Assembly (NCBI GenBank): GCA_020850415.1
Contig: JADZER010000060.1
Coordinates: 62,001-126,000, forward strand
Direction: 5' to 3'
Source of the DNA: Phycisphaerales bacterium
GTDB taxonomy: Bacteria; Planctomycetota; Phycisphaerae; Phycisphaerales; UBA1924
DNA length: 64,000 bases
The position numbers were made by a program, and so were the translations under genes. Shown piece by piece: positions 13,048 through 39,081 of the stretch. How positions within the stretch are numbered: the stretch's first letter is position 1; each line of letters opens with the position of its first letter. The notes beneath the pieces were generated by a model. The model was not told where the DNA came from. It did not search any database and saw only the letters and a program-made list of their open reading frames with translations.

Positions 13048-14054
13048 GCCAATCCTCCGATCCCGAGCAGGACGATGAGCCTGCCGACGGTCCAGCCCGC
13101 CCCCAGAGAACCGACCACATACCCGGGCGCCAGGCGCTGCCACCGGGACCACCTGAACTCTAGCACCCTCGCCGCAACCGCCAACGCCAGAAGCACCGCC
13201 ACGAACCCGAGCTGCCCCACCTCCACACCAACATTGAACGCGAGCAGGGCGGTGACCAGCTCGTCCCGCGGCACACCGATCGCAGACAGCCCGCCGGCGA
13301 ACCCGAACCCGTGCAGCAGCCCGAACGCGAACGCCACCAGCCAGGGCCGACGGATCGTCAGGCTCGTCTCCCCCCTCGCGACGCGGACGATCTCCGGCCC
13401 GAGGAACAGGATGCTCATGGCGATGAGCACATTGAGCGTGGGCCCGTCGGGGTAGATCAGGCCGAGGGTCGTTGCGCCGAGCGTCAGGCTGTGGGCGACG
13501 GTGAAGGCGGTGATGGTCTTCACCAGCGTCGCGCGCCCCCGCACGATGAAGAGCAGCCCGACGACGAACAGCAGGTGATCGACGCCGCCAAGGATGTGCT
13601 GCACCCCCAGGCGGAGGTACCCCATCGCCGTGTCGGCGAGCGTCGGCGACGCCTCCACCACGAACGACGGCCGGTAGGGCTTGAGGCTGGCGAGCTGGGT
13701 CGAGCCGTCGAGCCGGCGCACGCGCACCATCGCGTCGGTCGTGACGCCGTTGAGCCCCTCCACCCGCACCGTCCGCCCCACCAGCCCGCCCTCGCACCGC
13801 ACGCTCCACCGGTCGAACCAGGCGTCGCCGATCAGCTCGCGCGTGACGGGCCCCGCCGCCACGCACTCCGGCGGCAGGAGGACCTCGACGGGCAGACGCG
13901 CGGCGCCCTGGGCCGGCGCCTTCCACAGGATGTCGTAGGTGTCCGGGCCGGTCTGGCGGATCTCCAGGTACGCGGGCATCAGCTCGTGCCCGGAGGCGAG
14001 CCGGGGGACGAGCGCCAGCAGCAGGGCGACGCACCAGAACAGCCGGGCACGCAT
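13044..14054 (-). CDS. HupE/UreJ family (extended, periplasmic N-domain)
   Basis: GHELMPAYLEIRQTGPDTYDILWKAPAQG...LGVQHILGGVDHLLFVVGLL...FAFGLLHGFGFA. Confidence 0.88.
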   Translation of the reverse strand: MRARLFWCVALLLALVPRLASGHELMPAYLEIRQTGPDTYDILWKAPAQGAARLPVEVLLPPECVAAGPVTRELIGDAWFDRWSVRCEGGLVGRTVRVEGLNGVTTDAMVRVRRLDGSTQLASLKPYRPSFVVEASPTLADTAMGYLRLGVQHILGGVDHLLFVVGLLFIVRGRATLVKTITAFTVAHSLTLGATTLGLIYPDGPTLNVLIAMSILFLGPEIVRVARGETSLTIRRPWLVAFAFGLLHGFGFAGGLSAIGVPRDELVTALLAFNVGVEVGQLGFVAVLLALAVAARVLEFRWSRWQRLAPGYVVGSLGAGWTVGRLIVLLGIGGLA

Positions 14055-14980
14055 CACGGCGCCCCCCCGGGCGGGGTCGATTGCTGGCCCGATTGCTGAT
14101 CCGATTGCTGATCCGATTGCTGGGCCGATTCCGGCGCGGGTTGCTCGATCACGACCCGGTACTTCCCGAGCAGCTCGTCCTCGAACGCCGCCGTCGCCTC
14201 GGCCCGGCGCTGCTCCCGCCACGCGATCGCGACGCTCTCCCGCACGGTGTCCATGGGCAGCAGCTCGCCCGGGGCCCGGGCGGTGACGCGGACAAGGTGC
14301 ACGCCGTAGACCGAATCAACCGGGCCGACCCACTCGCCCAGGGGCGCGCCGCGCACCAAGGCGCCGAAGGCCGAGCCGTAGGTCCTCTCGACCACATCCT
14401 CCGCGTAGAGGTCGTAGTGGTAGGGGCGCCGGAACGGGTCGCTGTACCGCTCGGGGTCGGCGTCGGGGCCGAGGCCGCGGAGCGTCTCGAGCAGTTCTGC
14501 GCTGCGGGCGTCCACCCGCGGCCCCCACACCTTCCCGTCGAGGAACACATGATCGAATGTCGCCCGGCCGGGCGAGGTGAACATCTCCGGGTGTCCGACC
14601 CGGAATGCCTCGAGCTCGTCCTGAGTGGGGATGCTCTCGTCGGCCGCGGCGGCGCCGAGGAAGCGCATCCGCTGGGCCAGCCGCGCGCGCACGACCGTGT
14701 CCTCGCGTGCCATGCCCGTCGCCAGCGCCTCGCGGACGAGGGCCTCCTCGCGCACGAACAGGTCGATGATCGCCCCGTCCTCGGCCGGCGTGGGGTCCCG
14801 CCCCCACGCGCCGCGGAACGACGCCCGGAGCGATTCGGCCTGGGCCTCGGAGACGCGGAGCTCGTCCTGCGGGGGAGCGCCGGGCCGGCGCCCCCCGGCC
14901 GCACGCCCCAGCACGACCAGCGCCGCCCCGATGAGGACGAAGTGCACCAGCGGTTCTCGGAGGAGCGTGCGTGGGGTCAC
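14054..14980 (-). CDS. Parvulin-type peptidyl-prolyl isomerase, membrane anchored
   Basis: EPLVHFVLIGAALVVLG...PFRRPYHYDLYAEDVVERTYGSAFGALVRGAPLGEWVGPVDSVYGVHLVRV. Confidence 0.85.
   Translation of the reverse strand: MTPRTLLREPLVHFVLIGAALVVLGRAAGGRRPGAPPQDELRVSEAQAESLRASFRGAWGRDPTPAEDGAIIDLFVREEALVREALATGMAREDTVVRARLAQRMRFLGAAAADESIPTQDELEAFRVGHPEMFTSPGRATFDHVFLDGKVWGPRVDARSAELLETLRGLGPDADPERYSDPFRRPYHYDLYAEDVVERTYGSAFGALVRGAPLGEWVGPVDSVYGVHLVRVTARAPGELLPMDTVRESVAIAWREQRRAEATAAFEDELLGKYRVVIEQPAPESAQQSDQQSDQQSGQQSTPPGGAP
14079..14126. repeat. 12-bp tandem repeat (gattgctgatcc)x4 in PPIase gene
   Basis: gattgctggccc gattgctgatcc gattgctgatcc gattgctgggcc; encodes QQSDQQSDQQSGQQS. Confidence 0.9.
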
Positions 14981-15091: not shown

Positions 15092-16780
15092 TCAGTAGAC
15101 CGGGTCCCACATGGCGGCGCGGACGGTGGCCTTGATCTCGTCGTCGCTCTGGCGTCGGCCGAGGTTGAGCCTCCTGGCCTCGCGCATCACCGAGCAGGCG
15201 ATCTCGCAGGAGACCTCGCGGAGGCGGTTCTGGGTCGGGAAGAGCGACCCGGTGCGGACATCGTCGGCCGAGACGCACCCCGCGAGGGTGCGGGCGGCGG
15301 CGAGGAACATCGAGTCGGTCACCTGCGACGCCTCGGAGAGGATCACGCCGAGCCCGACGCCCGGGAAGATGAACACATTGTTGCCCTGCCCGATGACCAT
15401 CGTGCGTCCGTTGTACTCGACGGGTGCGAAGGGGCTGCCCGTCGCGATGATCGCCCGCCCGTCGGTCCAGGCGATCGCCTCGGCGGGGGAGCACTCGCTC
15501 TTGCTGGTCGGGTTCGAGAACGGCATGATGATGGGCCGCTCGGTGTGCCTGGCCATCTCGCGGATGGCCTCCTCGTGGAAGGCGCCGGCGGTGGCGCTGG
15601 TCCCGATGAGGATCGTCGGTTTCACGGCCGAGACGACCGCCAGCAGCTCGTGCTTGGCCTCCGGGGCCAGGCCGAGCTCGGCCATGTGGTCGGGGCGCAG
15701 GGCAAACTCCCGCTTGTTCTCGTCCTCGATCGGCACGCCCTCGTGGAGGAGCCCCCGGCTGTCGAGGAAGACCAGCGAGCGCCGGATCTGGTCCTCGCCG
15801 GCGCCCTCCTCACGCATCGCGGTGCGCAGCAGCCGGCCGATGCCGATCCCCGCCGACCCGCTCCCGACGAACACGACCCGCTGGTCGCCGAGGCGCTGGC
15901 GCGAGTGCTGCATGGCCGCGAGGATGCCGCCGACCGCGACGCCGGCCGTGCCCTGGATGTCGTCGTTGAAGCAGCGGAGGCGCAGGCGGTACCGGTCGAG
16001 CAGGCGCATGGCGTTGCGCTTCGAGAAGTCCTCCCACTGCAGGAGGGCCCGCGGGAACACCTCCACCACCGCCTCGACGAACTTCTCGATGAACTGGTCG
16101 TAGGCGTCCCCGCGCAGGCGCCGGTGGCGCCAGCCCGAGTAGAAGGGGTCGTCCAGCAGGTCTGGGTTGTCGGTCCCCACATCCAGGCTGATCGGCAGGC
16201 ACATGGAGGGATGGATGCCCGCGCCGGCGGTGTAGAGCGCGAGCTTGCCGACCGGGATGCCCATGCCCCCGGCCCCCTGGTCGCCCAGGCCCAGGATGCG
16301 CTCGTTGTCGGTCACGACGATCAGCCGGACATTCGGCGCCGGCGCGTGGCGCAGGATCGCCGGGATGCAGTCGATATCCTCCGGCGTGATCCACAGCCCG
16401 TAGGGGTGGCGCACGATGTGGCTGTACCGCTGGCACGCCTGGCCCACCGTCGGCGTGTACACGATCGGCATCAGCTCCGTGATGTGGTCGATCAGCAGCC
16501 GGTAGAACAGCGTGATGTTCCGGTCACGCAGCGCCTCCAGCCCGATGAACTTCTCCAGGTCGTCACGCTTGTGCGACAGGTGCTCCAGCTCGAGCGCGAC
16601 CTGCTCCTGCAGCTTCAGCGGCGTCGCCGGCAGCAGGCCCCGGAGCCCCAGCCGGTCGCGCTCCTCGAGCGTGAACCCGCGCCCCCGGTTGAGCATCCGA
16701 TCACGCAGGATCTGGGCGCCGGTCAGCCCGGCGACGGCCGGCGCCGGGACGGCGCCGAGGTGGTTGATGGTGGCGGGCAT
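15092..16780 (-). CDS. NAD(P)-dependent malic enzyme
   Basis: [75 protein letters not shown]. Confidence 0.95.
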
Positions 16781-17003
16781 GGCTCTTCCCCGCGGGGGTC
16801 GCCCGTGGTCCGTCGCGGTCGGCCCACCGGCCGACCCCACGACCGAGGCAAACTCCGTGCCCCGCGTGGCCCAGACAACGGATCGCAAAGGCGCTCCTTC
16901 TGGATAGATATGTCTATATTAGGGGGGTGACATCCGGGGGTCGAGCCCCCGACGCCGGCCGTCTGCGCCGTCGAGCCCCGGCGCCCTTGGGCCCCGCCCG
17001 GCC

Positions 17004-18086
17004 TCATTCCCGGCGGGGCGGGTGCACGATGGTCAGCCGCCCGGCGAGCCCGCTCGACACGGATACCCCCCCGGTCTCATCCACAAACACCGCCTCAACA
17101 CCCCGCAGCGACTCTACCACCGCCATGCCTCGCTCCACGCCCAGGATCATCAGTGCCGTGGAGAGGGCGTCGGCCAGCGTTGCATCCGCACAGACCACCG
17201 ACACCGCCCGCACCCCCCGCGACGGCCTTCCCGTCCTCGGGTCCAGCACATGGTGATAGCGGACCCCGCCGACCTCGAAGTACCGCTCGTAGTCGCCCGT
17301 GGTCGAAACCCCAGAGTCGGTCAGCTCGAGTGTCGCGAAGATGTCATCCGCCCGCCCCCGTGGGTCGCGGATGCCGACCCACCAAGGTCGCCCGGCGATT
17401 CCGGCCCCCGGCCCGGCGGGTCTGGCCCCGCCGACCACGATCTGCCCCCCGGCCGACACGAGGTAGGACTCGATCCCCGCTCCCCGAAGGGCGTCGGCGG
17501 CTCGGTCCAGTGCGTACCCCTTGGCGATCCCCCCCAGGCCGATCAACATCCCCGCCTGCGGCAGGTACACGGTCCCCGCGTCGTTGTCGATCACCACCTT
17601 GCGGTAGTCGATCAGGCTGATCCGGGAGGCGATTTCCCCGTCGGTCGGGACCCGCGGCTGTGCGGCCTTGAAGTCCCATAGCCCCCACATCGCCGCCCAG
17701 GTCAGGTCAAACGCCCCGTCGGTCAACACGCCTATCTCGACCGCGCGGGCGATCACCTCTCTGAGTTCGTCGGGCACCGCCACGGGCTCGATCCCGGCGG
17801 CCCTGTTCACCCCGGAGAGCGGCGAGGTGTCCTTCCACTCGCTCATCTCGGCGTCCACGCGCCGGAAGGTCTCGAACACGATCCGGGCCGCGTCCTCGAT
17901 CCGGTCGGCGGGGGCCTCGACCGTGATCGGGGTCGCCATGATCTCCTCGGTGCGGGAGATGAAGGGCGCGGGATCGGTCGCCACGGGGGCGTTGGGGGGG
18001 TGCCTCCGCGGCCAGACCGCGCGCCCGAGGCCGGCGCCGACGAGGAGCCCGACCGCCAATGCCGCGATGAGCCGCCCACGCCTCAA
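17004..18086 (-). CDS. apbE: FAD:protein FMN transferase (ApbE)
   Basis: AEMSEWKDTSPLSGVNRAAG, DLTWAAMWGLWDF, IGLGGIAKGYALDRAADALRGAG, SAGGQ, VSTTGDYERYFEVGGVRYHHVLDPRTGRPSRGVRAVSVV. Confidence 0.93.
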   Translation of the reverse strand: MRRGRLIAALAVGLLVGAGLGRAVWPRRHPPNAPVATDPAPFISRTEEIMATPITVEAPADRIEDAARIVFETFRRVDAEMSEWKDTSPLSGVNRAAGIEPVAVPDELREVIARAVEIGVLTDGAFDLTWAAMWGLWDFKAAQPRVPTDGEIASRISLIDYRKVVIDNDAGTVYLPQAGMLIGLGGIAKGYALDRAADALRGAGIESYLVSAGGQIVVGGARPAGPGAGIAGRPWWVGIRDPRGRADDIFATLELTDSGVSTTGDYERYFEVGGVRYHHVLDPRTGRPSRGVRAVSVVCADATLADALSTALMILGVERGMAVVESLRGVEAVFVDETGGVSVSSGLAGRLTIVHPPRRE

Positions 18087-18280
18087 GAACCGGGCCCGCC
18101 GCTGTGCCGCCGCTCGTACGCGTCGATGTCGTCCGGGAGCGAGCATTTGCCCGCGGGGGCGCGGTCGCGCATGCCGGCGTCGAGGCGTGCGGCGAGGCGC
18201 TGCCAGAGCAGCCACCCGACGGTGAGGGCCGCCATCGCCACGCCTCCGACCAGGATCTGCGTCCAGTCGATCACGCCCAC
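18083..18280 (-). CDS. Small (65 aa) single-TM protein between rnfA and apbE
   Basis: MGVIDWTQILVGGVAMAALTVGWLLWQRLAARL...; overlaps apbE start (TTGA), 4-nt gap to rnfA. Confidence 0.6.
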   Translation of the reverse strand: MGVIDWTQILVGGVAMAALTVGWLLWQRLAARLDAGMRDRAPAGKCSLPDDIDAYERRHSGGPGS

Positions 18281-18283
18281 AGC

Positions 18284-18862
18284 CTACGACGCCGAGAACA
18301 TCCCCGCAAACCCCATGAACGCCATCGAGAGGATCCCCGCGATGATCATGCTCAGGGCGGTGCCCTTGATCACGGCCGGGATCGTCGCCAGTTCCAGCTC
18401 CTCGCGCAGCCCGGCCATGAGCACGAGGGCCAGGGTGAACCCGCCGCCGGCGCCGACCGCGAACGCCAGGCCCTGGATGAGGCTGTACTCCTTGCTGGTC
18501 TGCGTGAGCGCCAGGAACAGGATCGCGCAGTTGGTGGTGATGAGCGGGAGGTAGATGCCCAGCGCCCGGAAGAGCACCGGGCTGACCTTCTTGATCAGCA
18601 TCTCCACGAACTGCACCGTCGAGGCGATCACCACGATGAAGCTGATGAGCTTCAGGTACGGCGCGTAGGGGAGGACGAATGTGGTCAGCGCCCACGACGA
18701 GAGCGAGGTGATGACCATCACGAAGGTCGTCGCCATCCCCAGCCGGAACGCCACCTGCAGGCGCCCCGAGACGCCGAAGAACGGGCACAGCCCCAGGAAG
18801 TAGTACAGCGTGAAGTTGTTCACCAGCATCGCGCCGACGAAGATCCAGACCAGGTCGCTCAT
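18284..18862 (-). CDS. rnfA: Rnf electron transport complex subunit A
   Basis: VNNFTLYYFLGLCPFFGVSG...LITTNCAILFLAL. Confidence 0.95.
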   Translation of the reverse strand: MSDLVWIFVGAMLVNNFTLYYFLGLCPFFGVSGRLQVAFRLGMATTFVMVITSLSSWALTTFVLPYAPYLKLISFIVVIASTVQFVEMLIKKVSPVLFRALGIYLPLITTNCAILFLALTQTSKEYSLIQGLAFAVGAGGGFTLALVLMAGLREELELATIPAVIKGTALSMIIAGILSMAFMGFAGMFSAS

Positions 18863-19500
18863 GCCGACGCTCCCGCCCTGCGGGCGAGCTTGCGCTGCTT
18901 CACCCAATTGAACAACAGCAGGATGCCGCCGAGCACCAGGAACCCGCCGGGCGGCAGGACCATGATGACCCACGGCTCGTAGCTCGGGCCGAAAAGGGGC
19001 ACGCCGAAGATCGAGCCCGAGCCGAGGATCTCCCGCGTCGACCCGAGGCACATCAGCGCGATGAAGAACCCCACCGACATCCCCGCCGCGTCGAGCACCG
19101 CGGGCAGCGGCGGGTTCCGCCCCGCGAACGCCTCCTGCCGGCCCAGGATGATGCAGTTCACCACGATCAGCGCGATGAACGCCCCCAGCTCCTTGTGCAC
19201 CGCGGGCACGAGCGCCTCGAGCACCATGTCCGCGATCGTCACGAAGGTCGCGATGATGACGATGTAGGTGGTGATCCGCACCTGCTTGGGGATGTACTTC
19301 CGCAGCGCCGACACCAGGAAGCACGACCCGATGAGCACAAAGGCCGTCGCCGCCCCCATCGCCACGGCGTTGACCGCCGAGTTGGTCACCGCCAGCGTCG
19401 GGCACATCCCCAGCACCTGGACGAACACGGGGTTCTCTTTCCAGATGCCCTTGGTGAACTCGTCGTACATCTTCTCGGGCGTCATCTTCGGGGTGCTCAC
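18859..19500 (-). CDS. rnfE: Rnf electron transport complex subunit E
   Basis: IWKENPVFVQVLGMCPTLAVTNSAVNAVAMG...VNCIILGRQEAFA. Confidence 0.95.
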   Translation of the reverse strand: MSTPKMTPEKMYDEFTKGIWKENPVFVQVLGMCPTLAVTNSAVNAVAMGAATAFVLIGSCFLVSALRKYIPKQVRITTYIVIIATFVTIADMVLEALVPAVHKELGAFIALIVVNCIILGRQEAFAGRNPPLPAVLDAAGMSVGFFIALMCLGSTREILGSGSIFGVPLFGPSYEPWVIMVLPPGGFLVLGGILLLFNWVKQRKLARRAGASA

Positions 19501-20198
19501 GGACGGCCCCCCTCTCGGGCGCCGGGCTGCGCGGCCGGGGCCGGCGCGGGCGGCTCCTCGCCCGCCGGCGGCAGGCTGCCCAGCCAGAACGCGTTGCCCT
19601 CGTTGATGATCCTGGCGACCGCCTTGGACGAGATCGTCGCCCCCGTGATCGCGTCCACCTCGAACGGCTGGTCCCGCCCGTCCTTGACCACCGTGATCTC
19701 CGGCTCGACAGCAAGGTCGTTGAAGTTGGCCACGAACGAGTCGCTCTTGAAGATCTTGTCGCCCAGCCCGGGCGTCTCCCGGCTGGCGAGGATCCGCATC
19801 CCGATCACACGCTTGGTCGCCGGGTCGTAGCCGTAGAGCAATTGGATCTCGTCCTGGAACCCCGCCCCGGCGTTCCGGACGGCGTAACCGCGGAAGTTCC
19901 CCTCGTCGTCGTACCCGCCGTAGATCACCGGGTCGGTGGTCTTCTCATCGGGGCTGATCGGCACGAGCACCCCGGCACGGAGCGCCAGATACGACACCGC
20001 ACTCGAGCCGGGCACGACCTCCAGCACCGCCGCCTGCAGGGCCTTGGCCTTGTTGGCCGCGATAATCGGCGTCGTGACCTGGTACGCCCAGCTCAGCAGG
20101 AACCCCGAGAGCATCCCGGACAGCGCCAGCGTCGCCGTCAGGCGCACGCCGCTCGGCTCGTTGCCGCGCCCCTTGATGGTCAGTTCGACCTCACTCAT
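19497..20198 (-). CDS. rnfG: Rnf electron transport complex subunit G
   Basis: RETPGLGDKIFKSD, VDAITGATISSKAV (FMN attachment motif). Confidence 0.93.
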   Translation of the reverse strand: MSEVELTIKGRGNEPSGVRLTATLALSGMLSGFLLSWAYQVTTPIIAANKAKALQAAVLEVVPGSSAVSYLALRAGVLVPISPDEKTTDPVIYGGYDDEGNFRGYAVRNAGAGFQDEIQLLYGYDPATKRVIGMRILASRETPGLGDKIFKSDSFVANFNDLAVEPEITVVKDGRDQPFEVDAITGATISSKAVARIINEGNAFWLGSLPPAGEEPPAPAPAAQPGAREGGRP

Positions 20199-21210
20199 GC
20201 TCGATCGCCCCCCGCCCGAAGGGTCGCGGCTGGGTCACACGCTCGATCAGCGGCGTCGCCGCGTTCATCAGCAGGATCGCGTACATCACACCCTCCGGCA
20301 GCCCGCCCCACAGCCGGATCAGGACCACGATCACGCCGATCCCCGCCCCGAACGCCCACGCCCCCCGCGGCGTCACCGGGCTGGTCACCGGGTCGGTCGC
20401 CATGTACACCGCGCCGAACAGCAGCCCGCCGCTGGTCAGCATCGCCCACGGCGCAGGGAACTTCTCGGTGTTGAACGCCCAGACGACCGTGCTGAACACC
20501 GTCACCGAGAGAAGGATCGCCGCCGGGATCCGCCAGTCGAACGCCCGCCGGACCGCCATCACAACGCCGCAAAGCAGGATGACGATCGCGCAGGTCTCGC
20601 CGAGCGACCCGGCCGTGTTGCCCAGCAGCAGGTCTGTCAGCGGCGTGGTCTGGTGCTCGAACTTCATCAGGCCCAGGGGTGTCGCGGTCGCCACCGCGTC
20701 GGGCGTGGCCTGCATGAACGGCGCCGCGAAGTTCGACGCCCGGACCGTGAAAAAGCCCCCGATGTCCCCCTGCGCCGACCAGGTGGTGATCGCGCCGGGG
20801 AACGCAGCCTGCAGGAACGCCCGCCCGACCAGCGCCGGGTTGAACATGTTCTGCCCCAGCCCGCCGAACGCCAGCTTGCCCAGGCAGATCCCGGCCGCCC
20901 CGCCCAGGAACGCCATCCACAGCGGGAAGCCCGGCGGCAGGCAGAGGGCGAGGACGATGCCGGTCAGGATCGCGCTGCCGTCCTTGAGGGTCCGGCCGCG
21001 GGGCCTGGCCGGCCCGAGCAGCCACTCGGCCCCGGCCGCCCCGGCCGTCGTGGCGAGCATTACGAAAATCGCGCTGATCCCGAAGAAGTAGACCGCCGCG
21101 AGGATCACCGGCCCCATGCCGATGATCACCTCGGTCATCAGCCTCGGCGTGGTGATGCCCCGCCGCAGAAACGGCGCCGACTGCAGCAACAGACGCGGAT
21201 CGCCAGCCAT
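20191..21210 (-). CDS. rnfD: Rnf electron transport complex subunit D
   Basis: Polytopic; GLGQNMFNPALVGRAFL, ATATPLG, FGAVYMATDPVTSPVTPRG. Confidence 0.94.
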   Translation of the reverse strand: MAGDPRLLLQSAPFLRRGITTPRLMTEVIIGMGPVILAAVYFFGISAIFVMLATTAGAAGAEWLLGPARPRGRTLKDGSAILTGIVLALCLPPGFPLWMAFLGGAAGICLGKLAFGGLGQNMFNPALVGRAFLQAAFPGAITTWSAQGDIGGFFTVRASNFAAPFMQATPDAVATATPLGLMKFEHQTTPLTDLLLGNTAGSLGETCAIVILLCGVVMAVRRAFDWRIPAAILLSVTVFSTVVWAFNTEKFPAPWAMLTSGGLLFGAVYMATDPVTSPVTPRGAWAFGAGIGVIVVLIRLWGGLPEGVMYAILLMNAATPLIERVTQPRPFGRGAIEHE

Positions 21211-22544
21211 CATCCTTGCTTGGCCTTTCGCTGACGGATCGTGAGCTTCGCAGCCCGGATCAGGTGCACGATCGGGACGCTGGAGGGGCAAGTGTATGTG
21301 CACGCCCCGCACTCCATGCAGTCCATGACGAACGCCCCCTCGAGCTCCTCGTAGCGCCCGGCCCTCGCCAGCCGCGCGAGCCGCGAGGGGTTCAGGAAGT
21401 TCCCGCACGCCTCCAGGCACGACCCGCACCGCACGCACGCGTACTCGGTCGGGTGGTTGACCATGTTGTCGGTGAACGCCAGCAGACCGCTCGTCCCCTT
21501 CACCACCGGCGCGTCCAGCGTCGCCAGCGGCATCCCCATCATCGGCCCGCCCATGACCACCTGGCGGGTATCCCGGTTGATCCCGCAGTGACGCAGCACA
21601 TCCCGGATCGGTGTGCCGATCGGCACGATCAGGTTCGCCGGCCGGTCAACCCCCGGACCCGCCACCGTCAGCGCCCGCTCGATCAGCGGCTGCCCGCGGT
21701 CGAACCAGTCCGTCAGGCACGCCATCGTCGCGACATTGTTGACGACCACGCCGATATCCAGCGGCAGGTGCCCCGCCGGCACCTCCTCGTTGAACACCGC
21801 CTTGATCAGCATCTTCTCCGCGCCCTGCGGGTACTTCACTGCCAGCGGCGCGACGGTGATCTTCGAGCCCGCCGGCAGGTGGGCCCGCAGCGAGTCGATC
21901 CCGTCGGGCTTGTTCATCTCGACGCCGATCCACGCGCCCCTGGCCCCCAGCTTTTCGGCCAGGATCGACACCCCCCGCACGACCTCCGCCGGGCGCTCGA
22001 CCATCACCCGGTGGTCGCAGGTCAGGTACGGCTCGCACTCGCACCCGTTGATCACCAGCCGTTCGCACGCCTTGCCCTCGGGCAGCTTGTACTTCACATG
22101 GCTGGGGAACGCCGCCCCGCCGAGCCCGACCAGCCCCGCCCGCTGCACGCTCGCGGCGAACTCGTCCACGCCCATCGCGAAGGGGTCCACCGGGTCGCGC
22201 TCACGGAACTGCTGCGAGGAATAGGGGTCCGCCTCGATCTGGATCGCCGGGACCAGCTGCCCGTTGCCCTGCCGGTGAGGCCCCACATCCACCACCCGCC
22301 CCGTCACCGGGCTGTGCAGGCTCGTCGAGACGAACCCGCCCGGCTCGGCGATCAGTTGCCCGCGCGTGACCTTCTCCCCCGCCCGCACCACCGCCCTGCA
22401 CGGCGCCCCGATGTGCTGACCCAGCGGCAGCACATACCGCCCCACGAACGGCATCCGCTCGAGCGGCAGGTGCTCGGTCTCCTCCTTGTGCTCCAGCGGG
22501 TGCACGCCGTGCCGGAAGCTCTTTCGGTTGGGGAGCGACGACAC
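21210..22544 (-). CDS. rnfC: Rnf electron transport complex subunit C
   Basis: VGLGGAAFPSHVKY, INGCECEPYLTCDHR, CVRCGSCLEAC and CMECGACTYTCP. Confidence 0.95.
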   Translation of the reverse strand: MSSLPNRKSFRHGVHPLEHKEETEHLPLERMPFVGRYVLPLGQHIGAPCRAVVRAGEKVTRGQLIAEPGGFVSTSLHSPVTGRVVDVGPHRQGNGQLVPAIQIEADPYSSQQFRERDPVDPFAMGVDEFAASVQRAGLVGLGGAAFPSHVKYKLPEGKACERLVINGCECEPYLTCDHRVMVERPAEVVRGVSILAEKLGARGAWIGVEMNKPDGIDSLRAHLPAGSKITVAPLAVKYPQGAEKMLIKAVFNEEVPAGHLPLDIGVVVNNVATMACLTDWFDRGQPLIERALTVAGPGVDRPANLIVPIGTPIRDVLRHCGINRDTRQVVMGGPMMGMPLATLDAPVVKGTSGLLAFTDNMVNHPTEYACVRCGSCLEACGNFLNPSRLARLARAGRYEELEGAFVMDCMECGACTYTCPSSVPIVHLIRAAKLTIRQRKAKQG

Positions 22545-25500
22545 TTAGGCACGCTCCCCGCCGTACCCGGCGATCGCCATCAGGCGGCTGGTGATGTTGT
22601 CGGTCGTCTCGAGCGCGAACTGGGACCGCAGTTGGGCGAGCTGCGCCTCGTGCTGGGCCTTGAGCGCCGCGACCTCGGCCTGCCGTGCGCCCGCCACGCT
22701 CTGCTCGATTTCCTGGCGCACCTTCTCGGTGAAGGGCGTGACCTCACCGGCCAGCTCTTGGAGCGTCCGCCACAGCCGGGCCCGGTCGGCGCCGTCGCGT
22801 GCAAGCGTTGTCCCGACGGCGAACCGGGACTTCCCGCCCTCGGCCCCGAGCTCGACGAACGGCGTCTTGCTCGCCCTCGCCTCCGCGTCCAGATCCAGGT
22901 ACTCGGACATCGCGACCGGGTTGTTCGCCTCGCGCCCCATGGGCGTGAGCTGCTCGGCGAACCGCGCCTCGCTGGCCGCCCAGTGCGCCGGCGTGATCGC
23001 CGCGCCGTGCTCGCCGTACACCCACTTGTCCCGGGGCGACGGGTTCATCGAGATGTCGATGCACGAACCGAACACCCCCGCCCCCGCCGGGTCGAAGGTC
23101 GCCAGGGGCCAGGCCCGCGACGCAACGGCCAGGGCCGCCTGCTCGAACAGCCCCGCGACGCCGAACCCGTGCCGCTCCGGGCTCGGGGCGTGCACATGCA
23201 CCAGCGCCGGTCCGGCCGTCGCCAGCGCCCGCTCGACGCTCGCGGCGAAGTGCGCCGCGTGCGCCACCGAGCACTGCGTCACGAACGCCTTCCGCGACAG
23301 CATCGCCAGGAGCGCGATGTCGTACCGCTGCGCCGGCGGGTAGCTGCCCATCGAGTCCAGGCTCAGCGCCCCGTCCGCCTTGCCGCCGATGTCGCTCAGC
23401 ACCACCGCCTTGATCGGCAGCCCGCTCTCGAACAGCCACACGAGCTGGCTCAGCCCGCGAGCGCCGAGCGACTGCCCGTCGCCGACGAGCACCATCGGCG
23501 GCACGAGCTCGCGCTCGTCGGCCGTGAGGTCCGCGTAGGTGAGACCCGCCAGCCGCGCCGCCGCGTGCGGGGCCTCGTTCGGCCGGTCGATCTCCAGCCG
23601 CGCCAGCCGGATCAGCCGGAACCCGTCGATCACCTCGCGCAGGTAGCCCTCAAGCACGCCCCGCGCCAGGCCCCCCGCCTCGCCCGCGGCGTCGATCGCC
23701 ACCGGCGAGAGGAACGGGTTGTACGGGTAGGCGCCCGCCCAGGCCGCGACCGACCCGGCCGCGAGCGTGAGCCCGACCCGGGCCCGGCCGAGCCCCAGCG
23801 GCCCGCGTGTGAGCTTCCACTCCAGGTCGGCCAAGCCCCTGGCCGCGTCGACCAGCCGCGCGAGCAGCTCGCCGTCCACATGCCCGTTGACGATCGCCGA
23901 GTCGATCTTCGACGAGAGCGCGCCGAGCTCGACATCGCCCCGACCGAGCGTCTCGAGCCCCGCCGAGAGCGCCTCGAGGTCCGCCGTCGGCAGCGCCGCC
24001 GCGAGCTGCTTCTGGATCCGTTCGCTCAGCTTGCCCCGCAGCCCGTTGATCATCCCCACCAGCCTCTGCGTCCGCGGCTGGTAGTGGAACTCCGCGACCG
24101 CCAGCACCTGGCGCAGCGCCAGCTTTGCCCCCGACCCCGCCTCGGCCCCGTCGCCCGGCGCCATCGCGTGCAGGCAGTGCCGGCTGAGCATCATCGCCGC
24201 GAGCGGGCCGATGCGGTCGTCCTTGCGCACCCGCTCGATGATCTCTCCCGGGGTGTCCGGTAGCGACTGCCACAGCGCCCACCCCTTGCGGGCCCGCTCG
24301 ACCGCCTCGGGCGTGCGGGGCTTAAGCGCGATGCCGTGCCCCGCGCCCCGGGCCCCGATCAGCTCCGGGCACTTGCACGCGTCGGGGTTCACCGCCAGCG
24401 ACAGGAGCGCCCCCGTCCCCGGCGCCGCGTGCTCGGCGTCGCGGAAGAACAGATCCGTCACCGCGATCGGCAGCCCGCCGATCTGCGCCTTCACCGCCTC
24501 GAACGCCGCGCCGACCGCCGACGCCCGCGTCGCATCCAGCTTCGCCGCGATATCGCCGATCGTCGCGCCGAACAGCTCGCCCGCGGTGGTGGGGGGGTTC
24601 TCGCCCATCGCCAGCTTCGCCGCCCGCTTGACCATCTGCCCGATGACCGGGCGCAGGGCGTCGGCCTGGGCCCCGGCCCGCGTCGCCATGTCCAGCCCCG
24701 CCTCGAGCAGCGACTTGGGCGTGATCGCCAGCGCCGCCACCGACCCGTCCGGGCAGCTCGTCCACAGCGCCGGCGAGCCGTCGCACCCGCCGGGCACGAA
24801 CACGGGCAGCAGCCTGCAAGCCTGCCCTGCGTCGCGGAACACGCTCGACAGCGCCGGCGTCGAGCCCAACGCGCAGGCCGGCTCGCCCACCAGCTCGTCG
24901 AGCTCACCGCTCTTGTAGAACACCCCCGCGTGATCCCAGAACCGAGGCAGGCTCGCCAGCCCACCAGTCCGCGCCATCGCCATCACCTCCGCCGGAGGCG
25001 CAACCTCACCGCGCGCCGCACCGCGCCGAGCACCGGGCGTCGGGCTCGCGTCGAGCGCCGACTCCCCCTCGCCCCGGCTGACCCCTTCGAACCCGCCGGC
25101 GAACGCGTCCAGCAGCCGCTCACGCTCGCCCTCGGCCAGCTCGCCGAGCATCTCCGCCCGACGCGAGCGCACCTGCGCTGCGCCCGGCGTCTCCACCCCC
25201 AGCCGGATCAGCAGCGCGTGCAGCGCCCCCCCCAGCAGCCGCTCCCGGCGCACACCGGCGTCCGGTCCCTCGGGCAGCACGAGTTCGACCGCGTGCGCCT
25301 TGGCCTCGCGGGGCGCCCCCGCGCCCGCGTCGGCGAGCACCACCAGATCGGCCGCCACATCGTCGCCCGGGTCCGTGAAGGGCTCGGTCGAGAAGCTCAC
25401 CCGATCGGTGACCACCTCCCCGGCCCGCTGCCAGCTGATGCCCGGGCGCGAACGCACGAACAGCCCCGGCTTGGACCCAGCCAGCCCGAACGCCAGCGTC

Positions 25501-27053
25501 GCCAGCTCCCCCGCGAACGACTCGAACCCCCGGCCCGCGGGGCGAAGTACGACGGCGGTGGTCAGCTGGTGCGCGGTCGGGGCGCTCTCTGCCCCGCGGT
25601 CCCGCAGCCCCAGCCCCGCCGCCTCCGGATAGTCCCGGCGCACGGCGTCGAGCAACGCTTGGTGTTTGGGGTACGCGCTCTTGGCGTGCACGAGATCGAG
25701 GCCGACATAGTGGAACGCCCGCGTCGGCGACGCCAGCTCGCGCACCAGCAGCGCCAGGTCCGCCCCCCGCACCGGCAGACCGCCGAGCCCCGCCGCCGCT
25801 CCGATCAGCCGGGGCATGTCGTTGGGCGACATCGGCGGCAGGCCCCGGTGGGTCTCCGCCCCGAACCGCCCGTTCTCGCGGCACTTGTCGAGCAGCCCGC
25901 GCACCTGACGCATCAGCGGGCCCTCGTCCGCCGGCGAGCACGCGATACGCTCGAGCACGCACACCACCTCGTGCCCGCGCAGCGCCAGCGCCAGCGCCGA
26001 CCCGTGCACGGGCCACGCCCGCTGCACGCCGACAACGCCGACCTTCAGCCTCTGCGCCCGCGCCCAGTCCGCGATGCTGACCGCCTGCTCGACCAGCGAC
26101 CCCTGCGCCACCAGCACGATCTTCGCGTCCCCGGTCCTGTGCGTCCGCACCGCGAGGTGCTCGCGCCCCGTCAGCGCCCCGTACCCCTGCACCGCCCCGG
26201 CCAGCACCCGCTCGATGTCCGCGTCCAGGAACACCCGGCCCGCCGCCGCCCCCAGCGCCCACGACTCCGGCCCCTGCGGCGAACCCAGGGCCATCGGGCG
26301 CTCCAGGTCGTACACCGCCGGCACGCGCCGGCGCGTCTCGCCGAAGATCGTCCGCTGGGCCGCGCTCGCCGGCGGGATCACATCCGTCGCGCTGCCCAGG
26401 AACTCCCGCACCAGCCCGTCGCCCGGCATCGCCACGCTCTGGACCGCCAGCGCCGTCTGCTCGGCGTCCATCGCCACGACCGCCGGCACGAGCGCCAGCT
26501 CGCTCACCCGGCGGGCGATCACCGCCAGGTCCACCGCCTCCTGCACGCTCGCCGCGAGGAACCGCACCGCCCCGACGCCCTCCAGCGCGTGGTACGCCTC
26601 GTGCCCGCTCCCCAGCGCCGGCGCGTGCCCCGCCCCCGCCCGCAGCACCAGGTGCACCACCAGCGGCAAGCGCCGCCCCGCCGCCTCGGCGAGCAGGTCC
26701 CGGCACTGCAGCGCGTCGGGCCCGGAGAGAAATACCGTCGCCCGCCGCCCCGCCATCGCCGCGCCCATCGCCGCCGCGAGAGCCGCCCGCGGGCTGTCCG
26801 CGTCCACGCCCGTGATCGGCGCGTTGAGCGCGTTGAGCCGGAGCCCCGCCTCGTGCCCTCCCCAGACCCTCGCCGCCAGCGCCGCCGGGTAGCTCGCCCC
26901 CAGGCCCGCGACATCGCACACCCGCGCCTCGACCGCCGCCACCGCCGACACGCCGTCGAGCAGCTGCATCTTGCCAGCGTGCGGCGCGGGCGCGGCCTTG
27001 CCGCGGATCATCCGCCGGAGCACCCGCAGCGATTCGGACGCAAAGCTACTCAC
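22545..27053 (-). CDS. Large PFOR-like (2-oxoacid:ferredoxin oxidoreductase superfamily) protein, 1502 aa, without ferredoxin domain
   Basis: PFOR-like order of domains; TPP-type VLVGDGQSLGARGLSQLVWLFESGLPIKAVVLSD; SMNPSPRDKWVYGE; C-terminal coiled coil LWRTLQELAG...AALKAQHEAQLAQLRSQFA; no CxxCxxC cluster. Confidence 0.75.
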   Translation of the reverse strand: MSSFASESLRVLRRMIRGKAAPAPHAGKMQLLDGVSAVAAVEARVCDVAGLGASYPAALAARVWGGHEAGLRLNALNAPITGVDADSPRAALAAAMGAAMAGRRATVFLSGPDALQCRDLLAEAAGRRLPLVVHLVLRAGAGHAPALGSGHEAYHALEGVGAVRFLAASVQEAVDLAVIARRVSELALVPAVVAMDAEQTALAVQSVAMPGDGLVREFLGSATDVIPPASAAQRTIFGETRRRVPAVYDLERPMALGSPQGPESWALGAAAGRVFLDADIERVLAGAVQGYGALTGREHLAVRTHRTGDAKIVLVAQGSLVEQAVSIADWARAQRLKVGVVGVQRAWPVHGSALALALRGHEVVCVLERIACSPADEGPLMRQVRGLLDKCRENGRFGAETHRGLPPMSPNDMPRLIGAAAGLGGLPVRGADLALLVRELASPTRAFHYVGLDLVHAKSAYPKHQALLDAVRRDYPEAAGLGLRDRGAESAPTAHQLTTAVVLRPAGRGFESFAGELATLAFGLAGSKPGLFVRSRPGISWQRAGEVVTDRVSFSTEPFTDPGDDVAADLVVLADAGAGAPREAKAHAVELVLPEGPDAGVRRERLLGGALHALLIRLGVETPGAAQVRSRRAEMLGELAEGERERLLDAFAGGFEGVSRGEGESALDASPTPGARRGAARGEVAPPAEVMAMARTGGLASLPRFWDHAGVFYKSGELDELVGEPACALGSTPALSSVFRDAGQACRLLPVFVPGGCDGSPALWTSCPDGSVAALAITPKSLLEAGLDMATRAGAQADALRPVIGQMVKRAAKLAMGENPPTTAGELFGATIGDIAAKLDATRASAVGAAFEAVKAQIGGLPIAVTDLFFRDAEHAAPGTGALLSLAVNPDACKCPELIGARGAGHGIALKPRTPEAVERARKGWALWQSLPDTPGEIIERVRKDDRIGPLAAMMLSRHCLHAMAPGDGAEAGSGAKLALRQVLAVAEFHYQPRTQRLVGMINGLRGKLSERIQKQLAAALPTADLEALSAGLETLGRGDVELGALSSKIDSAIVNGHVDGELLARLVDAARGLADLEWKLTRGPLGLGRARVGLTLAAGSVAAWAGAYPYNPFLSPVAIDAAGEAGGLARGVLEGYLREVIDGFRLIRLARLEIDRPNEAPHAAARLAGLTYADLTADERELVPPMVLVGDGQSLGARGLSQLVWLFESGLPIKAVVLSDIGGKADGALSLDSMGSYPPAQRYDIALLAMLSRKAFVTQCSVAHAAHFAASVERALATAGPALVHVHAPSPERHGFGVAGLFEQAALAVASRAWPLATFDPAGAGVFGSCIDISMNPSPRDKWVYGEHGAAITPAHWAASEARFAEQLTPMGREANNPVAMSEYLDLDAEARASKTPFVELGAEGGKSRFAVGTTLARDGADRARLWRTLQELAGEVTPFTEKVRQEIEQSVAGARQAEVAALKAQHEAQLAQLRSQFALETTDNITSRLMAIAGYGGERA

Positions 27054-27055
27054 GG

Positions 27056-27910
27056 TCAGCCTTCCCTTCCGTCAGTCGTCAACTGGACGAGGCGCACCGT
27101 CTTGAACTGCTGCCCCTCGATCCACCGGATCGCCCCCGTCGGGCAGCGGAATGTCGCCTCGGGCCTGGCCGGCCCGCCCGCCGAGTAGTCCACCACCGGC
27201 AGGTTGTTTGCCATCGTGATCAGACCCGGCGCCGCGTCCTGGGCGCACCGCCCGCACGCGTCGCACGCCACCGAGCACACCGCCCGCGCCTCGTCGCCCT
27301 CCAGCGGCGCCTTGCACTGCACGACCAGGTTGTGCCCGATCGGCATCAGCTCGAACAGCCCGCGCGGGCACGCCTCCACGCAGTCCCCGCACGCCGTGCA
27401 CCGGTCCGGGTCTACCACCGGCAGCCGCTGCCCGTTCATCGTGATCGCGTCGAAATCGCACGCCGCCTCGCAGTCGGCCAGCCCCAGGCACCCCCAGCTG
27501 CACCCCTTGCCCCCGCCCCCGACCAGGTGCGCCGCCCCGCAGTTGCCCCACCCCTCATACTCGGCGATCTGCCGCGCCTGCCCGAGCCCGCCCGCGCAGT
27601 GCAGCCGCGCCACGCGCTTCTCCGCCGCTCCCGCGTCCACACCCAGGAAGTTCGCGACCCGCTCGACCCCCTCCGGGCTGTTGACCGTGCACCCGCTGGG
27701 CTTGTTCCGCCCGCCGAGCAGCGACTCGGCGAACGCGCGGCAGCCCGCCTCGCCGCACGCCCCGCAGTTGGACCCCGGCAGCATCCCCTCGATGATGTCC
27801 AGCCGGGGGTCTTCCTCGACCTTCAGGAACTTGTTCGCGATCGCCAGCCCGGCGCCGAAGAACGCGCCCAGCCCCGTCATGATCAGGATGGCTGTCAGGA
27901 TCGTGCCCAC
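27056..27910 (-). CDS. rnfB: Rnf electron transport complex subunit B (Fe-S)
   Basis: GSNCGACGEAGCRAFAESL, CTACGDCVEACP, CDACGRCAQ. Confidence 0.95.
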   Translation of the reverse strand: MGTILTAILIMTGLGAFFGAGLAIANKFLKVEEDPRLDIIEGMLPGSNCGACGEAGCRAFAESLLGGRNKPSGCTVNSPEGVERVANFLGVDAGAAEKRVARLHCAGGLGQARQIAEYEGWGNCGAAHLVGGGGKGCSWGCLGLADCEAACDFDAITMNGQRLPVVDPDRCTACGDCVEACPRGLFELMPIGHNLVVQCKAPLEGDEARAVCSVACDACGRCAQDAAPGLITMANNLPVVDYSAGGPARPEATFRCPTGAIRWIEGQQFKTVRLVQLTTDGREG

Positions 27911-27921
27911 AGCGTCCCCCG

Positions 27922-37065: not shown

Positions 37066-39081
37066 CTATGGCTCGGTGACTCCGTCAGAGGGGGCTACGC
37101 CCCACGCCCCGGAGGCCAACTCTGCCGGGGCGCTCCCCTCATTGTTCGCACCCCGACGGCCCAGGGGCAGCCACGCGAGAAATCCCCCCGCCGCCATCAC
37201 CCCGCCCCCCACCCAGACCCACACCACCAGAGGGTTGATAACCACCACAAACCCCGCCCGCTCCCCGCCCGGAGACCACCACGCGAGCACCACATACAGG
37301 TCGCCCCCGGCCCGACGCCACACCGCGACCTCGCCCATCGGGTCCATCGCCCGGTCGTAGTACCGCCGCTGAGGCCGCAGCTCGCCCACAGCCCCCCGAG
37401 CGTCCGTCGCCCGGAGTCTCGCTTCCATCGCGCTGTAGTTCGCCCCCCTCAACTCCGTGAGTTCCCCGTACGCGATCCGATAGCCGCGAACCTCCACCTC
37501 CTCCCCCCGGCCGATGGTGCAGTGCTCCCGCGCCGAATAGAGCCCGGACCCGCAGACCCCCAGGAGCAGCAGACACAGCCCCGCGTGGGCAAGCTGTCCC
37601 CCGTACCGCCGCCGGTGCGCGCAGAGCGTGCCCCAGGCCGCCCCTGGCCACCCCTCCCCGGGGCCCCGTCTCGACCGCACGGTGTCGGCGAAGCGCAGAC
37701 CGATGACCCCGGGGGTGACCGTCGCGATCGCGATGCAGACGAGCGACGCAGAGTGCGTGATCCCCTGGATGAGCGCGGCCGTCCCCGCGGCCAGCGCCAG
37801 GGCGCCCGGCAGCACCAGCACCCGGCGCACTGCACCAGCGCCACCCTCCCCATACCCAAGCGCCGGCCCGACCGCCATCACGCACGCTCCCGCAAGCCCC
37901 AAGGACCCCACGACGCGGTTGTAGTAGGGGGCCCCCAGGCTCACCTGCTGCCCCAGGAGCAGCCCGCTGACCACCGGGAACAGCGTCCCCACCAGCGTGG
38001 CCACGAGCATCGCGCACAGCAGCAGGTGCAGCACAACCACCGCCCCGTCGCGCCCCAGCAGCCCGCCGATCCCGGGCCCGGACCGCAGCGTCCCGCGCCG
38101 CGCCCAGAGCAGCCCCACCGACCCACCCCCCAGCACCACGAGCAGCCCCAGCAGGTACACCCCGACCGTTGTCGCCCCGAACGCATGCACCGACACCAGC
38201 AGGCCGCTCCGGGTCAGCGTCGTTCCTAGCACGCAGAGAGAGAAGGCCAGGCACGCCAGGCCGGCCCCCCAACCCCGCAGGCTCCCCCGCTCCCTCGTCA
38301 CCAGCAGCGCGTGCAGCAGCCCCGTCACCGCGAGCCAGGGCATGAGCGAGGCGTTCTCGACCGGGTCCCACGCCCAGTACCCGCCCCAGCCGAGTTCCAC
38401 ATACGCCCACCACGCCCCCAGCAGGATGCCCCCCGTCAGGAACACCCAAGACGCCAGCGCCCACCGGCGCATCACCGCGAACAGGCCCGGCCCCAACTCG
38501 CCCGTCACCAGGCCCCCGATCGCGAGGGCGAACGGCCCCGCGCTGCAGGCGTACCCCAGGAACAGCGTCGGCGGATGCACCACCATCGCCCAGTGCTGCA
38601 GCATGGGGTTGAGCCCCACGCCGTTCTCAATCTCGGGGCGTGGGTTTGGCGCGAAGGGGTCCGCGACCATCAGAAGGATCGCCGCGAAGAACAGCCCCAG
38701 CGCCGCGAGCACCGCCCCGGCCAGCGCCGCCGGCGCGCCGCGGCCCGGGCGGACCGCCCCGATCGCCCCGACCCCCGCCAGCAGGAACGCCCAGAGCAGC
38801 AGGCTCCCCTCCTGGCCCGCCCAGACTGCGGCGACCTTGTACGCCACGGGCAGCCCGCGCTCCGAGTGCAGCGCGACCGCCCGCATGCCCAGGTCATCGC
38901 GCACAAACGCGGACATCAGGGTTCCCAGCGCGAGCGCCAGTCCCGTGAGCTGCCCCCATGCCGCCGCACGGATGAGCCCCGCCCCTCTGCCCCGCCCCCG
39001 GGTCATCAGCCCGGCCAACACCCCGACCGCCGCCATCCCCGCCGCGAGGACCAGCCCCGACTCGCCGATCCACCGGGTCAC
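37066..39081 (-). CDS. ccmF: Cytochrome c haem lyase subunit CcmF
   Basis: WAGQEGSLLLWAFLL, GLNPMLQHWAMVVHPPTLFLGY, WWAYVELGWGGYWAWDPVENASLMPWL. Confidence 0.95.
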   Translation of the reverse strand: MTRWIGESGLVLAAGMAAVGVLAGLMTRGRGRGAGLIRAAAWGQLTGLALALGTLMSAFVRDDLGMRAVALHSERGLPVAYKVAAVWAGQEGSLLLWAFLLAGVGAIGAVRPGRGAPAALAGAVLAALGLFFAAILLMVADPFAPNPRPEIENGVGLNPMLQHWAMVVHPPTLFLGYACSAGPFALAIGGLVTGELGPGLFAVMRRWALASWVFLTGGILLGAWWAYVELGWGGYWAWDPVENASLMPWLAVTGLLHALLVTRERGSLRGWGAGLACLAFSLCVLGTTLTRSGLLVSVHAFGATTVGVYLLGLLVVLGGGSVGLLWARRGTLRSGPGIGGLLGRDGAVVVLHLLLCAMLVATLVGTLFPVVSGLLLGQQVSLGAPYYNRVVGSLGLAGACVMAVGPALGYGEGGAGAVRRVLVLPGALALAAGTAALIQGITHSASLVCIAIATVTPGVIGLRFADTVRSRRGPGEGWPGAAWGTLCAHRRRYGGQLAHAGLCLLLLGVCGSGLYSAREHCTIGRGEEVEVRGYRIAYGELTELRGANYSAMEARLRATDARGAVGELRPQRRYYDRAMDPMGEVAVWRRAGGDLYVVLAWWSPGGERAGFVVVINPLVVWVWVGGGVMAAGGFLAWLPLGRRGANNEGSAPAELASGAWGVAPSDGVTEP

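What the first reader, a model, noticed from the sequence alone, without database searches (positions are those of the whole stretch)
22545..30426. Complementary degenerate PFOR-like paralogues flanking rnfB
Seen by eye: the 841-aa protein appears to align to the C-terminal part of the 1502-aa protein (ELLLLPPVLALETHERLGGPDMVSLSRLLLSGRPVDVLV / ERELVPPMVLVGDGQSLGARGLSQLVWLFESGLPIKAVVL; GRAHPLFHYDPEAGETWAARLDFSTNPSAEEDW / SRAWPLATFDPAGAGVFGSCIDISMNPSPRDKW; YWHTLQELSG / LWRTLQELAG, each followed by a coiled coil). The GDG of the TPP motif is kept only in the 1502-aa copy (ETH in the other); the [4Fe-4S]-like ferredoxin tail (CTSCNDC...CPARC) is kept only in the 841-aa copy. The canonical PFOR DTEVYSNTGGQ after GDG is also absent (SDIGGKADG). 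Inference: an ancestral fused enzyme duplicated and subfunctionalised into a TPP-like/scaffold chain and an Fe-S chain, perhaps acting as a heterodimer, or both are pseudoenzymes.
Basis: partly seen in the sequence, partly recalled or inferred. Interest (0 to 1): 0.88.

Follow-up and report, generated by a model that had tools for sequence, protein, structure and literature searches.

The report
Inactive PFOR pair in KorAB-Rnf operon
Two large proteins on either side of a membrane electron-pump gene are worn-down descendants of one pyruvate-oxidising enzyme; both have lost the catalytic machinery, yet bacteria of several phyla keep them in the same operon, probably as wiring between 2-oxoglutarate oxidation (KorAB) and the Rnf ion pump.

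Summary
The 841-aa protein (p841) is homologous to the C-terminal half of the 1502-aa protein (p1502): BLASTP E=1e-21, profile-profile E=2e-49. AlphaFold models of both best match PFOR in the PDB. The genes lie in one tight operon: korA-korB-p841-rnfB-p1502-rnfC-D-G-E-A.

Relatives show that the ancestor was an intact PFOR of about 1650-1700 aa with a C-terminal [4Fe-4S] ferredoxin tail, a family that is still common. p1502 lost the tail. p841 lost the front half and kept the tail. Neither is TPP-competent: none of 124 p1502 relatives keeps the proximal-cluster Cys812 or the TPP-binding NTGG, and at most 2 have a Glu at the catalytic position. The lone GDG in p1502 is not conserved. In the planctomycete clade p1502 also lost both ferredoxin-type clusters. 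Purifying selection (dN/dS about 0.2) and conserved gene order across several phyla show that the pair is functional. sucCD and nuoF join the operon in many Gammaproteobacteria, which points to 2-oxoglutarate/succinyl-CoA.

Best explanation: a non-catalytic PFOR-derived pair wires KorAB to RnfB through the tethered ferredoxin. The duplication and degeneration are shown; the wiring role is inferred. I found no paper describing the pair.

The parts
22545..27053 (-). p1502: catalytically dead PFOR-like chain (POR_N 83-225, PFOR_II 310-389, degenerate POR-gamma/Fe-S/TPP domains, C-terminal coiled coil)
   Evidence: Pfam/NCBIfam; AF2+Foldseek best hits all PFOR, E 1e-26; motif counts
27922..30426 (-). 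p841: PFOR C-terminal half without Fe-S insert segments, with [4Fe-4S] ferredoxin tail (Fer4_13, residues 765-818 of the 841-aa ORF); likely ATG start at 30426
27056..27910 (-). rnfB, between the two PFOR-derived genes (11-nt and 2-nt gaps)
   Evidence: NCBIfam rnfB
21210..22544 (-). rnfC (NADH/FMN 51K-type subunit), directly abuts p1502
   Evidence: TIGR01945 499 bits
20191..21438 (-). rnfD (ORF bounds; true start internal)
   Evidence: TIGR01946 300 bits
19497..20198 (-). rnfG (FMN_bind)
18859..19500 (-). rnfE (Rnf-Nqr)
18284..18860 (-). rnfA (Rnf-Nqr; start approximate, inside a longer ORF)
   Evidence: domain at residues 290-472 of the 476-aa ORF
17004..18788 (-). apbE (flavin transferase family; ORF bounds, start approximate)
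   Evidence: ApbE domain at residues 284-568
30437..31471 (-). korB: 2-oxoacid:ferredoxin oxidoreductase beta, TPP motif GDGDCCS... and CPGCGDH present
   Evidence: TIGR02177 232 bits; sequence
31446..33392 (-). korA: fused gamma-alpha subunit (start approximate)
   Evidence: TIGR03710 508 bits, over cut-off

Best explanation
p841 and p1502 are two non-catalytic descendants of one long PFOR (PFOR core plus C-terminal tethered [4Fe-4S] ferredoxin). They work with KorAB and RnfB as one module. KorAB, which keeps its TPP site, oxidises a 2-oxoacid, most likely 2-oxoglutarate, to the acyl-CoA (or makes it by CO2 fixation in reverse). The electron leaves KorB's [4Fe-4S] cluster and passes to the ferredoxin tail of p841, which hands it to RnfB and so to RnfC/NAD+ with ion pumping. 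p1502 is the partner scaffold that holds this together, by analogy with the two halves of a PFOR dimer. In most lineages it also carries two [4Fe-4S] clusters as extra relays; in the window's planctomycete clade it lost them and can only be structural. Shown: shared descent, loss of catalytic residues, purifying selection, conserved linkage. Inferred: physical complex, electron path, direction of flow.
For: Homology and fold. Ancestor: the intact fused form keeps every checked residue in at least 128 of 133 members. Tree: p841 and p1502 each one clade (100/100), nested in the intact family when rooted on canonical PFOR. Loss: 0 of 124 p1502 keep proximal Cys812 or NTGG; at most 2 have Glu at the catalytic site. 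Fe-S retained: 50 of 53 p841 keep all four tail Cys; 76 of 124 p1502 keep both domain-V clusters. Selection: dN/dS p841 0.21, p1502 0.19-0.25, korB 0.11, rnfB 0.12. Linkage: of 44 loci with enough upstream sequence, 34 have korA, korB, p841 and rnfB next to p1502; 10 of 10 genomes with p1502 also have p841, even when unlinked. Substrate: nuoF upstream and sucCD inserted between p1502 and rnfC in Gammaproteobacteria, leaving korA-korB-p841-rnfB-p1502 unbroken; in tubeworm symbionts this block occurs without rnfC-A. The intact PFOR occupies the same rnfB-rnfC slot in second rnf operons.
Against: No physical interaction was tested; no heterodimer was modelled. The window genome also has 2-oxoglutarate dehydrogenase E1, so KorAB is not its only route and its substrate could be another 2-oxoacid. 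Some Chromatiaceae/Thiotrichaceae have rnfB-p1502 without korAB nearby (L012, L019, L025-L027). Loss of p1502's clusters in Planctomycetota shows they are dispensable. Electron flow through the p841 tail is only analogy with tethered ferredoxins.
Confidence: 0.6

Rival explanations
1. The pair is a sensor or assembly factor rather than an electron path: the dead PFOR core still binds a 2-oxoacid or CoA and gates, or helps assemble, KorAB and RnfB.
For: Substrate-binding Arg114 of domain I is kept in 87 of 124 p1502 although catalysis is lost; p1502 of the planctomycete clade has no complete cluster left but is under purifying selection.
Against: p841 keeps all four ferredoxin Cys in 50 of 53 sequences, which a pure sensor would not need; most p1502 keep eight cluster Cys.
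Confidence: 0.17
2. The module is an NADH-linked, possibly bifurcating or reverse-running, reductase: Rnf or a NuoF-like subunit drives electrons uphill into KorAB for CO2 fixation (2-oxoglutarate synthase).
For: nuoF-like gene directly upstream of korA and sucCD downstream in thiotrophic Gammaproteobacteria, several of them autotrophs; RnfC and NuoF share the 51K domain; PMC6315080 proposes Rnf feeding the rTCA carboxylase.
Against: No nuoF was seen in this gene run of the window; the window genome has OGDH E1. Direction cannot be read from sequence. Compatible with the best explanation except for direction.
Confidence: 0.15
3. p1502 (with p841) is still a TPP enzyme with a divergent active site, as its usual annotation 'pyruvate-ferredoxin/flavodoxin oxidoreductase' says.
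For: Domain I and II score as PFOR; a GDG is present in the window protein; TPP_enzyme_C weak hit E=0.008.
Against: GDG is not conserved in orthologues; catalytic Glu is Pro/Ala; NTGG absent; proximal-cluster Cys lost across the family.
Confidence: 0.04
4. The pair is decaying sequence without function.
For: Many motifs lost; some neighbours look frameshifted in draft MAGs (L014, L096).
Against: Open frames, dN/dS about 0.2, and conserved order across phyla.
Confidence: 0.01

Closest known systems
Long PFOR with C-terminal Fer4_13 tail (P0156 family, 'pyruvate-ferredoxin/flavodoxin oxidoreductase', about 1650-1700 aa)
   Same: Same domain order, split domain-V ferredoxin, coiled coil and Fd tail; often in the same rnfB-rnfC slot
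   Different: Intact TPP site, proximal cluster and all other clusters; one chain instead of two
Canonical PFOR (Desulfovibrio 1b0p/7plm, Moorella 6cin, E. coli YdbK)
   Same: Fold (Foldseek E 1e-26 for p1502, 3e-6 for p841)
   Different: 12% identity, catalytic residues lost, extra C-terminal module and coiled coil; no Fd tail in the canonical form
KorAB 2-oxoglutarate:ferredoxin oxidoreductase (Magnetococcus 6n2n)
   Same: KorA/KorB of this operon belong to this superfamily
   Different: Magnetococcus KorAB is a two-subunit enzyme (own knowledge; chains); here korAB is accompanied by dead-PFOR partners
Rnf complex
   Same: rnfBCDGEA all present and in family
   Different: Operon interrupted by a PFOR-derived gene between rnfB and rnfC and preceded by korAB-p841
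'PFOR-like' gene of Endoriftia (PMC11636981)
   Same: Reported to fall in expression together with dimeric korAB; an Endoriftia contig encodes p1502 (L077)
   Different: The passages found do not describe the pair or its loss of catalysis; gene identity not verified here

Membership tests
Functional PFOR | Domain I/II and overall PFOR fold | tested here: met
   p1502; p841 only the C-terminal part:
Functional PFOR | Catalytic Glu64 and Thr31 of domain I | tested here: not met
   Pro/Ala and Phe/Tyr in most p1502; domain absent in p841
Functional PFOR | TPP/Mg motif GDG...NTGG | tested here: not met
   NTGG absent in both; GDG in the window p1502 but not conserved, absent in p841
Functional PFOR | Proximal [4Fe-4S] ligands (C812, C815, C840, C1071) | tested here: not met
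   C812 kept in 0 of 124 p1502 and 0 of 53 p841; window p1502 has none of C812, C815, C1071
Functional PFOR | Two domain-V [4Fe-4S] clusters | tested here: not met
   Window p1502 2+1 of 8 Cys; 76 of 124 relatives keep all 8
[4Fe-4S] ferredoxin domain (Fer4_13), p841 tail | CxxCxxC...C and Pfam over cut-off | tested here: met
   28.6 bits vs 24.5; 50 of 53 keep four Cys
Rnf complex | Subunits B, C, D, G, E, A encoded together | tested here: met
2-oxoacid:ferredoxin oxidoreductase KorAB | alpha(gamma) and beta subunits with intact TPP and Fe-S motifs | tested here: met
   KorA TIGR03710 over cut-off; KorB Pfam TPP_enzyme_C and PFO_beta_C over cut-offs, TIGR02177 232 bits (cut-off 262, so below); GDG and CPGC seen in sequence
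2-oxoacid:ferredoxin oxidoreductase KorAB | Substrate is 2-oxoglutarate | tested here: inconclusive
   sucCD in the operon of some Gammaproteobacteria; nothing in the window itself decides it
KorAB-p841-RnfB-p1502 complex | Physical association | not testable with these tools
   no complex prediction or biochemistry available

The most novel reading that the evidence does not exclude
A previously undescribed respiratory module found in several bacterial phyla, in which a duplicated PFOR gave up its chemistry to become a dedicated two-protein conductor and scaffold that couples KorAB directly to Rnf (or to a NuoF-type NADH subunit), replacing free ferredoxin in the TCA cycle.
Probability: 0.5. 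Interest if true: 0.85.

Novelty: new variant of a known kind. Interest (0 to 1): 0.74.

Why it matters
It would show how ferredoxin-dependent 2-oxoglutarate oxidation is plumbed straight into an ion pump, including in thiotrophic symbionts, and it is a clear case of an enzyme turned into a structural or electron-carrying subunit by duplication. It also has a practical side: p1502 proteins are named 'pyruvate-ferredoxin oxidoreductase' in databases, including two from Kentrum (P0095, P0099) that lack the catalytic residues. Studies that infer pyruvate synthase from PFOR copies (e.g. PMC6593406) should check which copies are intact. p841 is named only 'ferredoxin' or hypothetical; no Pfam model covers its first 760 residues.

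Tried and rejected
GDG in p1502 as a TPP site: rejected, not conserved. Single pseudogene or assembly artefact: rejected. One-duplication history with p841 and p1502 as sisters: favoured in the 64-row tree (97/96) but only 73/94 in a 37-row tree, and AU tests do not reject grouping either one with the intact PFORs (p 0.38 and 0.21); both sit on long branches, so left open. A separate 95-aa ferredoxin gene in the Gemmatimonadetes genome G101: probably the tail of the PFOR cut by a contig end (L139/L140), so not counted. My Thr31/Glu64/Arg114 columns depend on a MAFFT alignment; the Arg114 column was first off by one and was recounted, and the canonical PFORs are misaligned by a few residues at Glu64. 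Promoter/terminator scan gave nothing above chance. Literature searches for the pair or for KorAB-Rnf supercomplexes found nothing (one search found only the 'PFOR-like' mention); a 2025 Rnf review has no mention of PFOR or 2-oxoglutarate. Subscription papers and preprints were not searchable.

Full report
What is there. The stretch 17,000-33,400 of the window, - strand, is one compact gene run: korA, korB, p841, rnfB, p1502, rnfC, rnfD, rnfG, rnfE, rnfA, apbE. The gaps around the two proteins in question are 10, 11, 2 and 0 nt, so the genes are almost certainly co-transcribed. The genome is a planctomycete MAG: a same-genus genome (G003) carries a 5926-bp contig of the same length as locus L005, recorded as Planctomycetota.

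The similarity is real and wider than seen by eye. BLASTP gives 29% identity over 394 aligned positions, E=1e-21. Profile-profile comparison aligns 657 columns, E=2.4e-49, from p841 residue 43 into its coiled coil, onto p1502 695-1480; p841 lacks the segments that carry the Fe-S motifs. AlphaFold models (p841 pLDDT 84.9; p1502 residues 303-1502 pLDDT 88.7, pTM 0.89) have PFOR as best PDB match: for p1502 all top 18 hits (best E about 1e-26, TM about 0.5 over about 1236 columns), for p841 all top 16 hits, nearly all Moorella PFOR chains (best E 3e-6, probability 1.0, low whole-chain TM because only part of the chain matches).

The ancestor. Searching with p1502 turned up P0156, 1666 aa, with POR_N, PFOR_II, POR, two ferredoxin-type clusters, TPP domain, coiled coil and a Fer4_13 tail. 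Its family is large (3913 hits among the 8000 candidates scored). In an alignment of 133 such proteins, 124 p1502 and 53 p841, the intact family keeps Glu64, Thr31, Arg114, NTGG, GDG and all cluster Cys in at least 128 of 133. p1502 keeps domains I, II and so on but 0 of 124 keep Cys812; Cys815 is kept in 2; the catalytic Glu position is Pro in 75 and Ala in 24 with 2 Glu; NTGG is gone. p841 keeps the four tail Cys in 50 of 53. In 76 of 124 p1502 both domain-V clusters are complete. In the window's clade they are broken (3 of 8 Cys in the window protein).

History. On an IQ-TREE phylogeny of the shared region, p841 and p1502 are each one clade with full support, inside the intact long-PFOR family, rooted by canonical PFOR. 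The sister relation (one duplication) is favoured in the larger tree but not secure. Schekmanbacteria p841 (1370 aa, L079) still matches parts of domain I/II (P0156 residues 161-225 and 280-378), an intermediate. Between a same-genus genome and the window, dN/dS is 0.21 for p841 and 0.19-0.25 for p1502, against 0.11-0.14 for korA/korB/rnfB/rnfC and 0.27-0.29 for rnfD/rnfG: the pair evolves faster than the catalytic subunits but is clearly constrained. dS is near or above 1, so these ratios are approximate.

Conservation of the operon. A scan of the species-genome collection returned 77 loci in Planctomycetota, Gammaproteobacteria (Chromatiales, Thiotrichaceae, tubeworm, lucinid and nematode symbionts, Methylophaga), Myxococcota and other 'Deltaproteobacteria', Acidobacteriota, Gemmatimonadetes and Schekmanbacteria (the Gemmatimonadetes hit, L069, is an intact PFOR). 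Of 44 loci with at least 6.5 kb upstream of p1502, 41 have rnfB, 36 p841, 35 korB, 35 korA and 34 all four; of 62 with at least 2 kb downstream, 48 have rnfC. In Thiorhodococcus and Thiosymbion p841 is elsewhere in the genome, and all 10 genomes examined that have p1502 also have p841 (these genomes were chosen for p1502). Inside Planctomycetota the pair is rare: in an even sample of 300 genomes I count only the window genome and G162 as clear p841 carriers; most other matches are long PFORs or weak (one search adds G003, G062, G075).

Two informative variants. In many Gammaproteobacteria the order is nuoF-korA-korB-p841-rnfB-p1502-sucC-sucD-rnfC-D-G-E-A, and tubeworm symbionts have nuoF-korA-korB-p841-rnfB-p1502-sucC-sucD without rnfC-A at that place. 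sucCD use succinyl-CoA, so KorAB here most likely interconverts 2-oxoglutarate and succinyl-CoA, and korA-korB-p841-rnfB-p1502 behaves as the unit that stays together. Second, intact long PFOR occupies the rnfB-rnfC slot in other rnf operons (L133-L137), one of them (L134) with korAB and a small gene between korB and rnfB (358 aa in L134, 341 aa in the Gemmatimonadetes L069) that matches the p841 profile (hhalign probability 95.9, E=5e-9). So the association of PFOR with the rnfB-rnfC slot probably predates the loss of catalysis.

How it probably works. KorAB does the chemistry. p841 offers a tethered one-cluster ferredoxin, p1502 a PFOR-shaped partner, and both sit genetically against RnfB, the electron entry of Rnf. 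The simplest reading is a fixed electron path KorB to p841 tail to RnfB (with p1502 clusters as relay where present), coupling 2-oxoacid oxidation to NAD+ reduction and ion pumping, or the reverse. Contact and direction are inference. The window genome also has OGDH E1, so the system is an alternative route there.

Literature. PMC11636981 reports a 'PFOR-like' gene and a dimeric korAB of Endoriftia falling in expression together, which fits an operon but the gene was not matched here. PMC6315080 notes korAB next to other well-expressed TCA-cycle genes in the Escarpia symbiont and proposes Rnf input to the rTCA carboxylase. PMC6593406 counts highly expressed PFOR copies as pyruvate synthase in Kentron; at least two Kentrum 'PFOR' entries are p1502-type. 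I do not know whether those are the highly expressed ones. No paper in the searchable library describes the pair.

Noticed in passing
L133, L134, L135, L136, L137: Second type of rnf operon in several of the same genomes: rnfB - intact long PFOR - rnfCDGEA, once with korAB. The PFOR-Rnf link itself seems undescribed in the papers found.
   Followed up: partly
L069:341-1366; L134 about 13213-14289 (- strand): Small gene (341-358 aa) between korB and rnfB in intact-PFOR operons is a shrunken p841/PFOR relative without an Fd tail.
   Followed up: partly
L007, L009, L021, L022, L033, L054, L056 (upstream of korA, downstream of p1502): A nuoF-like NADH-binding subunit gene precedes korA, and sucCD follow p1502 in thiotrophic and other Gammaproteobacteria.
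   Followed up: yes
P0095, P0099 and many p1502 hits: Proteins annotated 'pyruvate-ferredoxin/flavodoxin oxidoreductase' lack catalytic Glu, NTGG and the proximal cluster: likely systematic misannotation.
   Followed up: yes
L036:17926-21861, L129, L141: PFORs of about canonical length (1213-1312 aa) coexist with p1502 and p841 in some of these genomes, one of them close to the rnf operon in L036.
   Followed up: no
window 15092-16888, 33876-39117: Malic enzyme downstream of the rnf operon and cytochrome c assembly genes (Cytochrom_C_asm, CcmF) upstream of korA.
   Followed up: no
L013: Type-B operon (korAB-p841-rnfB-p1502-rnf) followed by a second rnfB and the start of an intact-type long PFOR: the two operon types seem to stand in tandem.
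   Followed up: no
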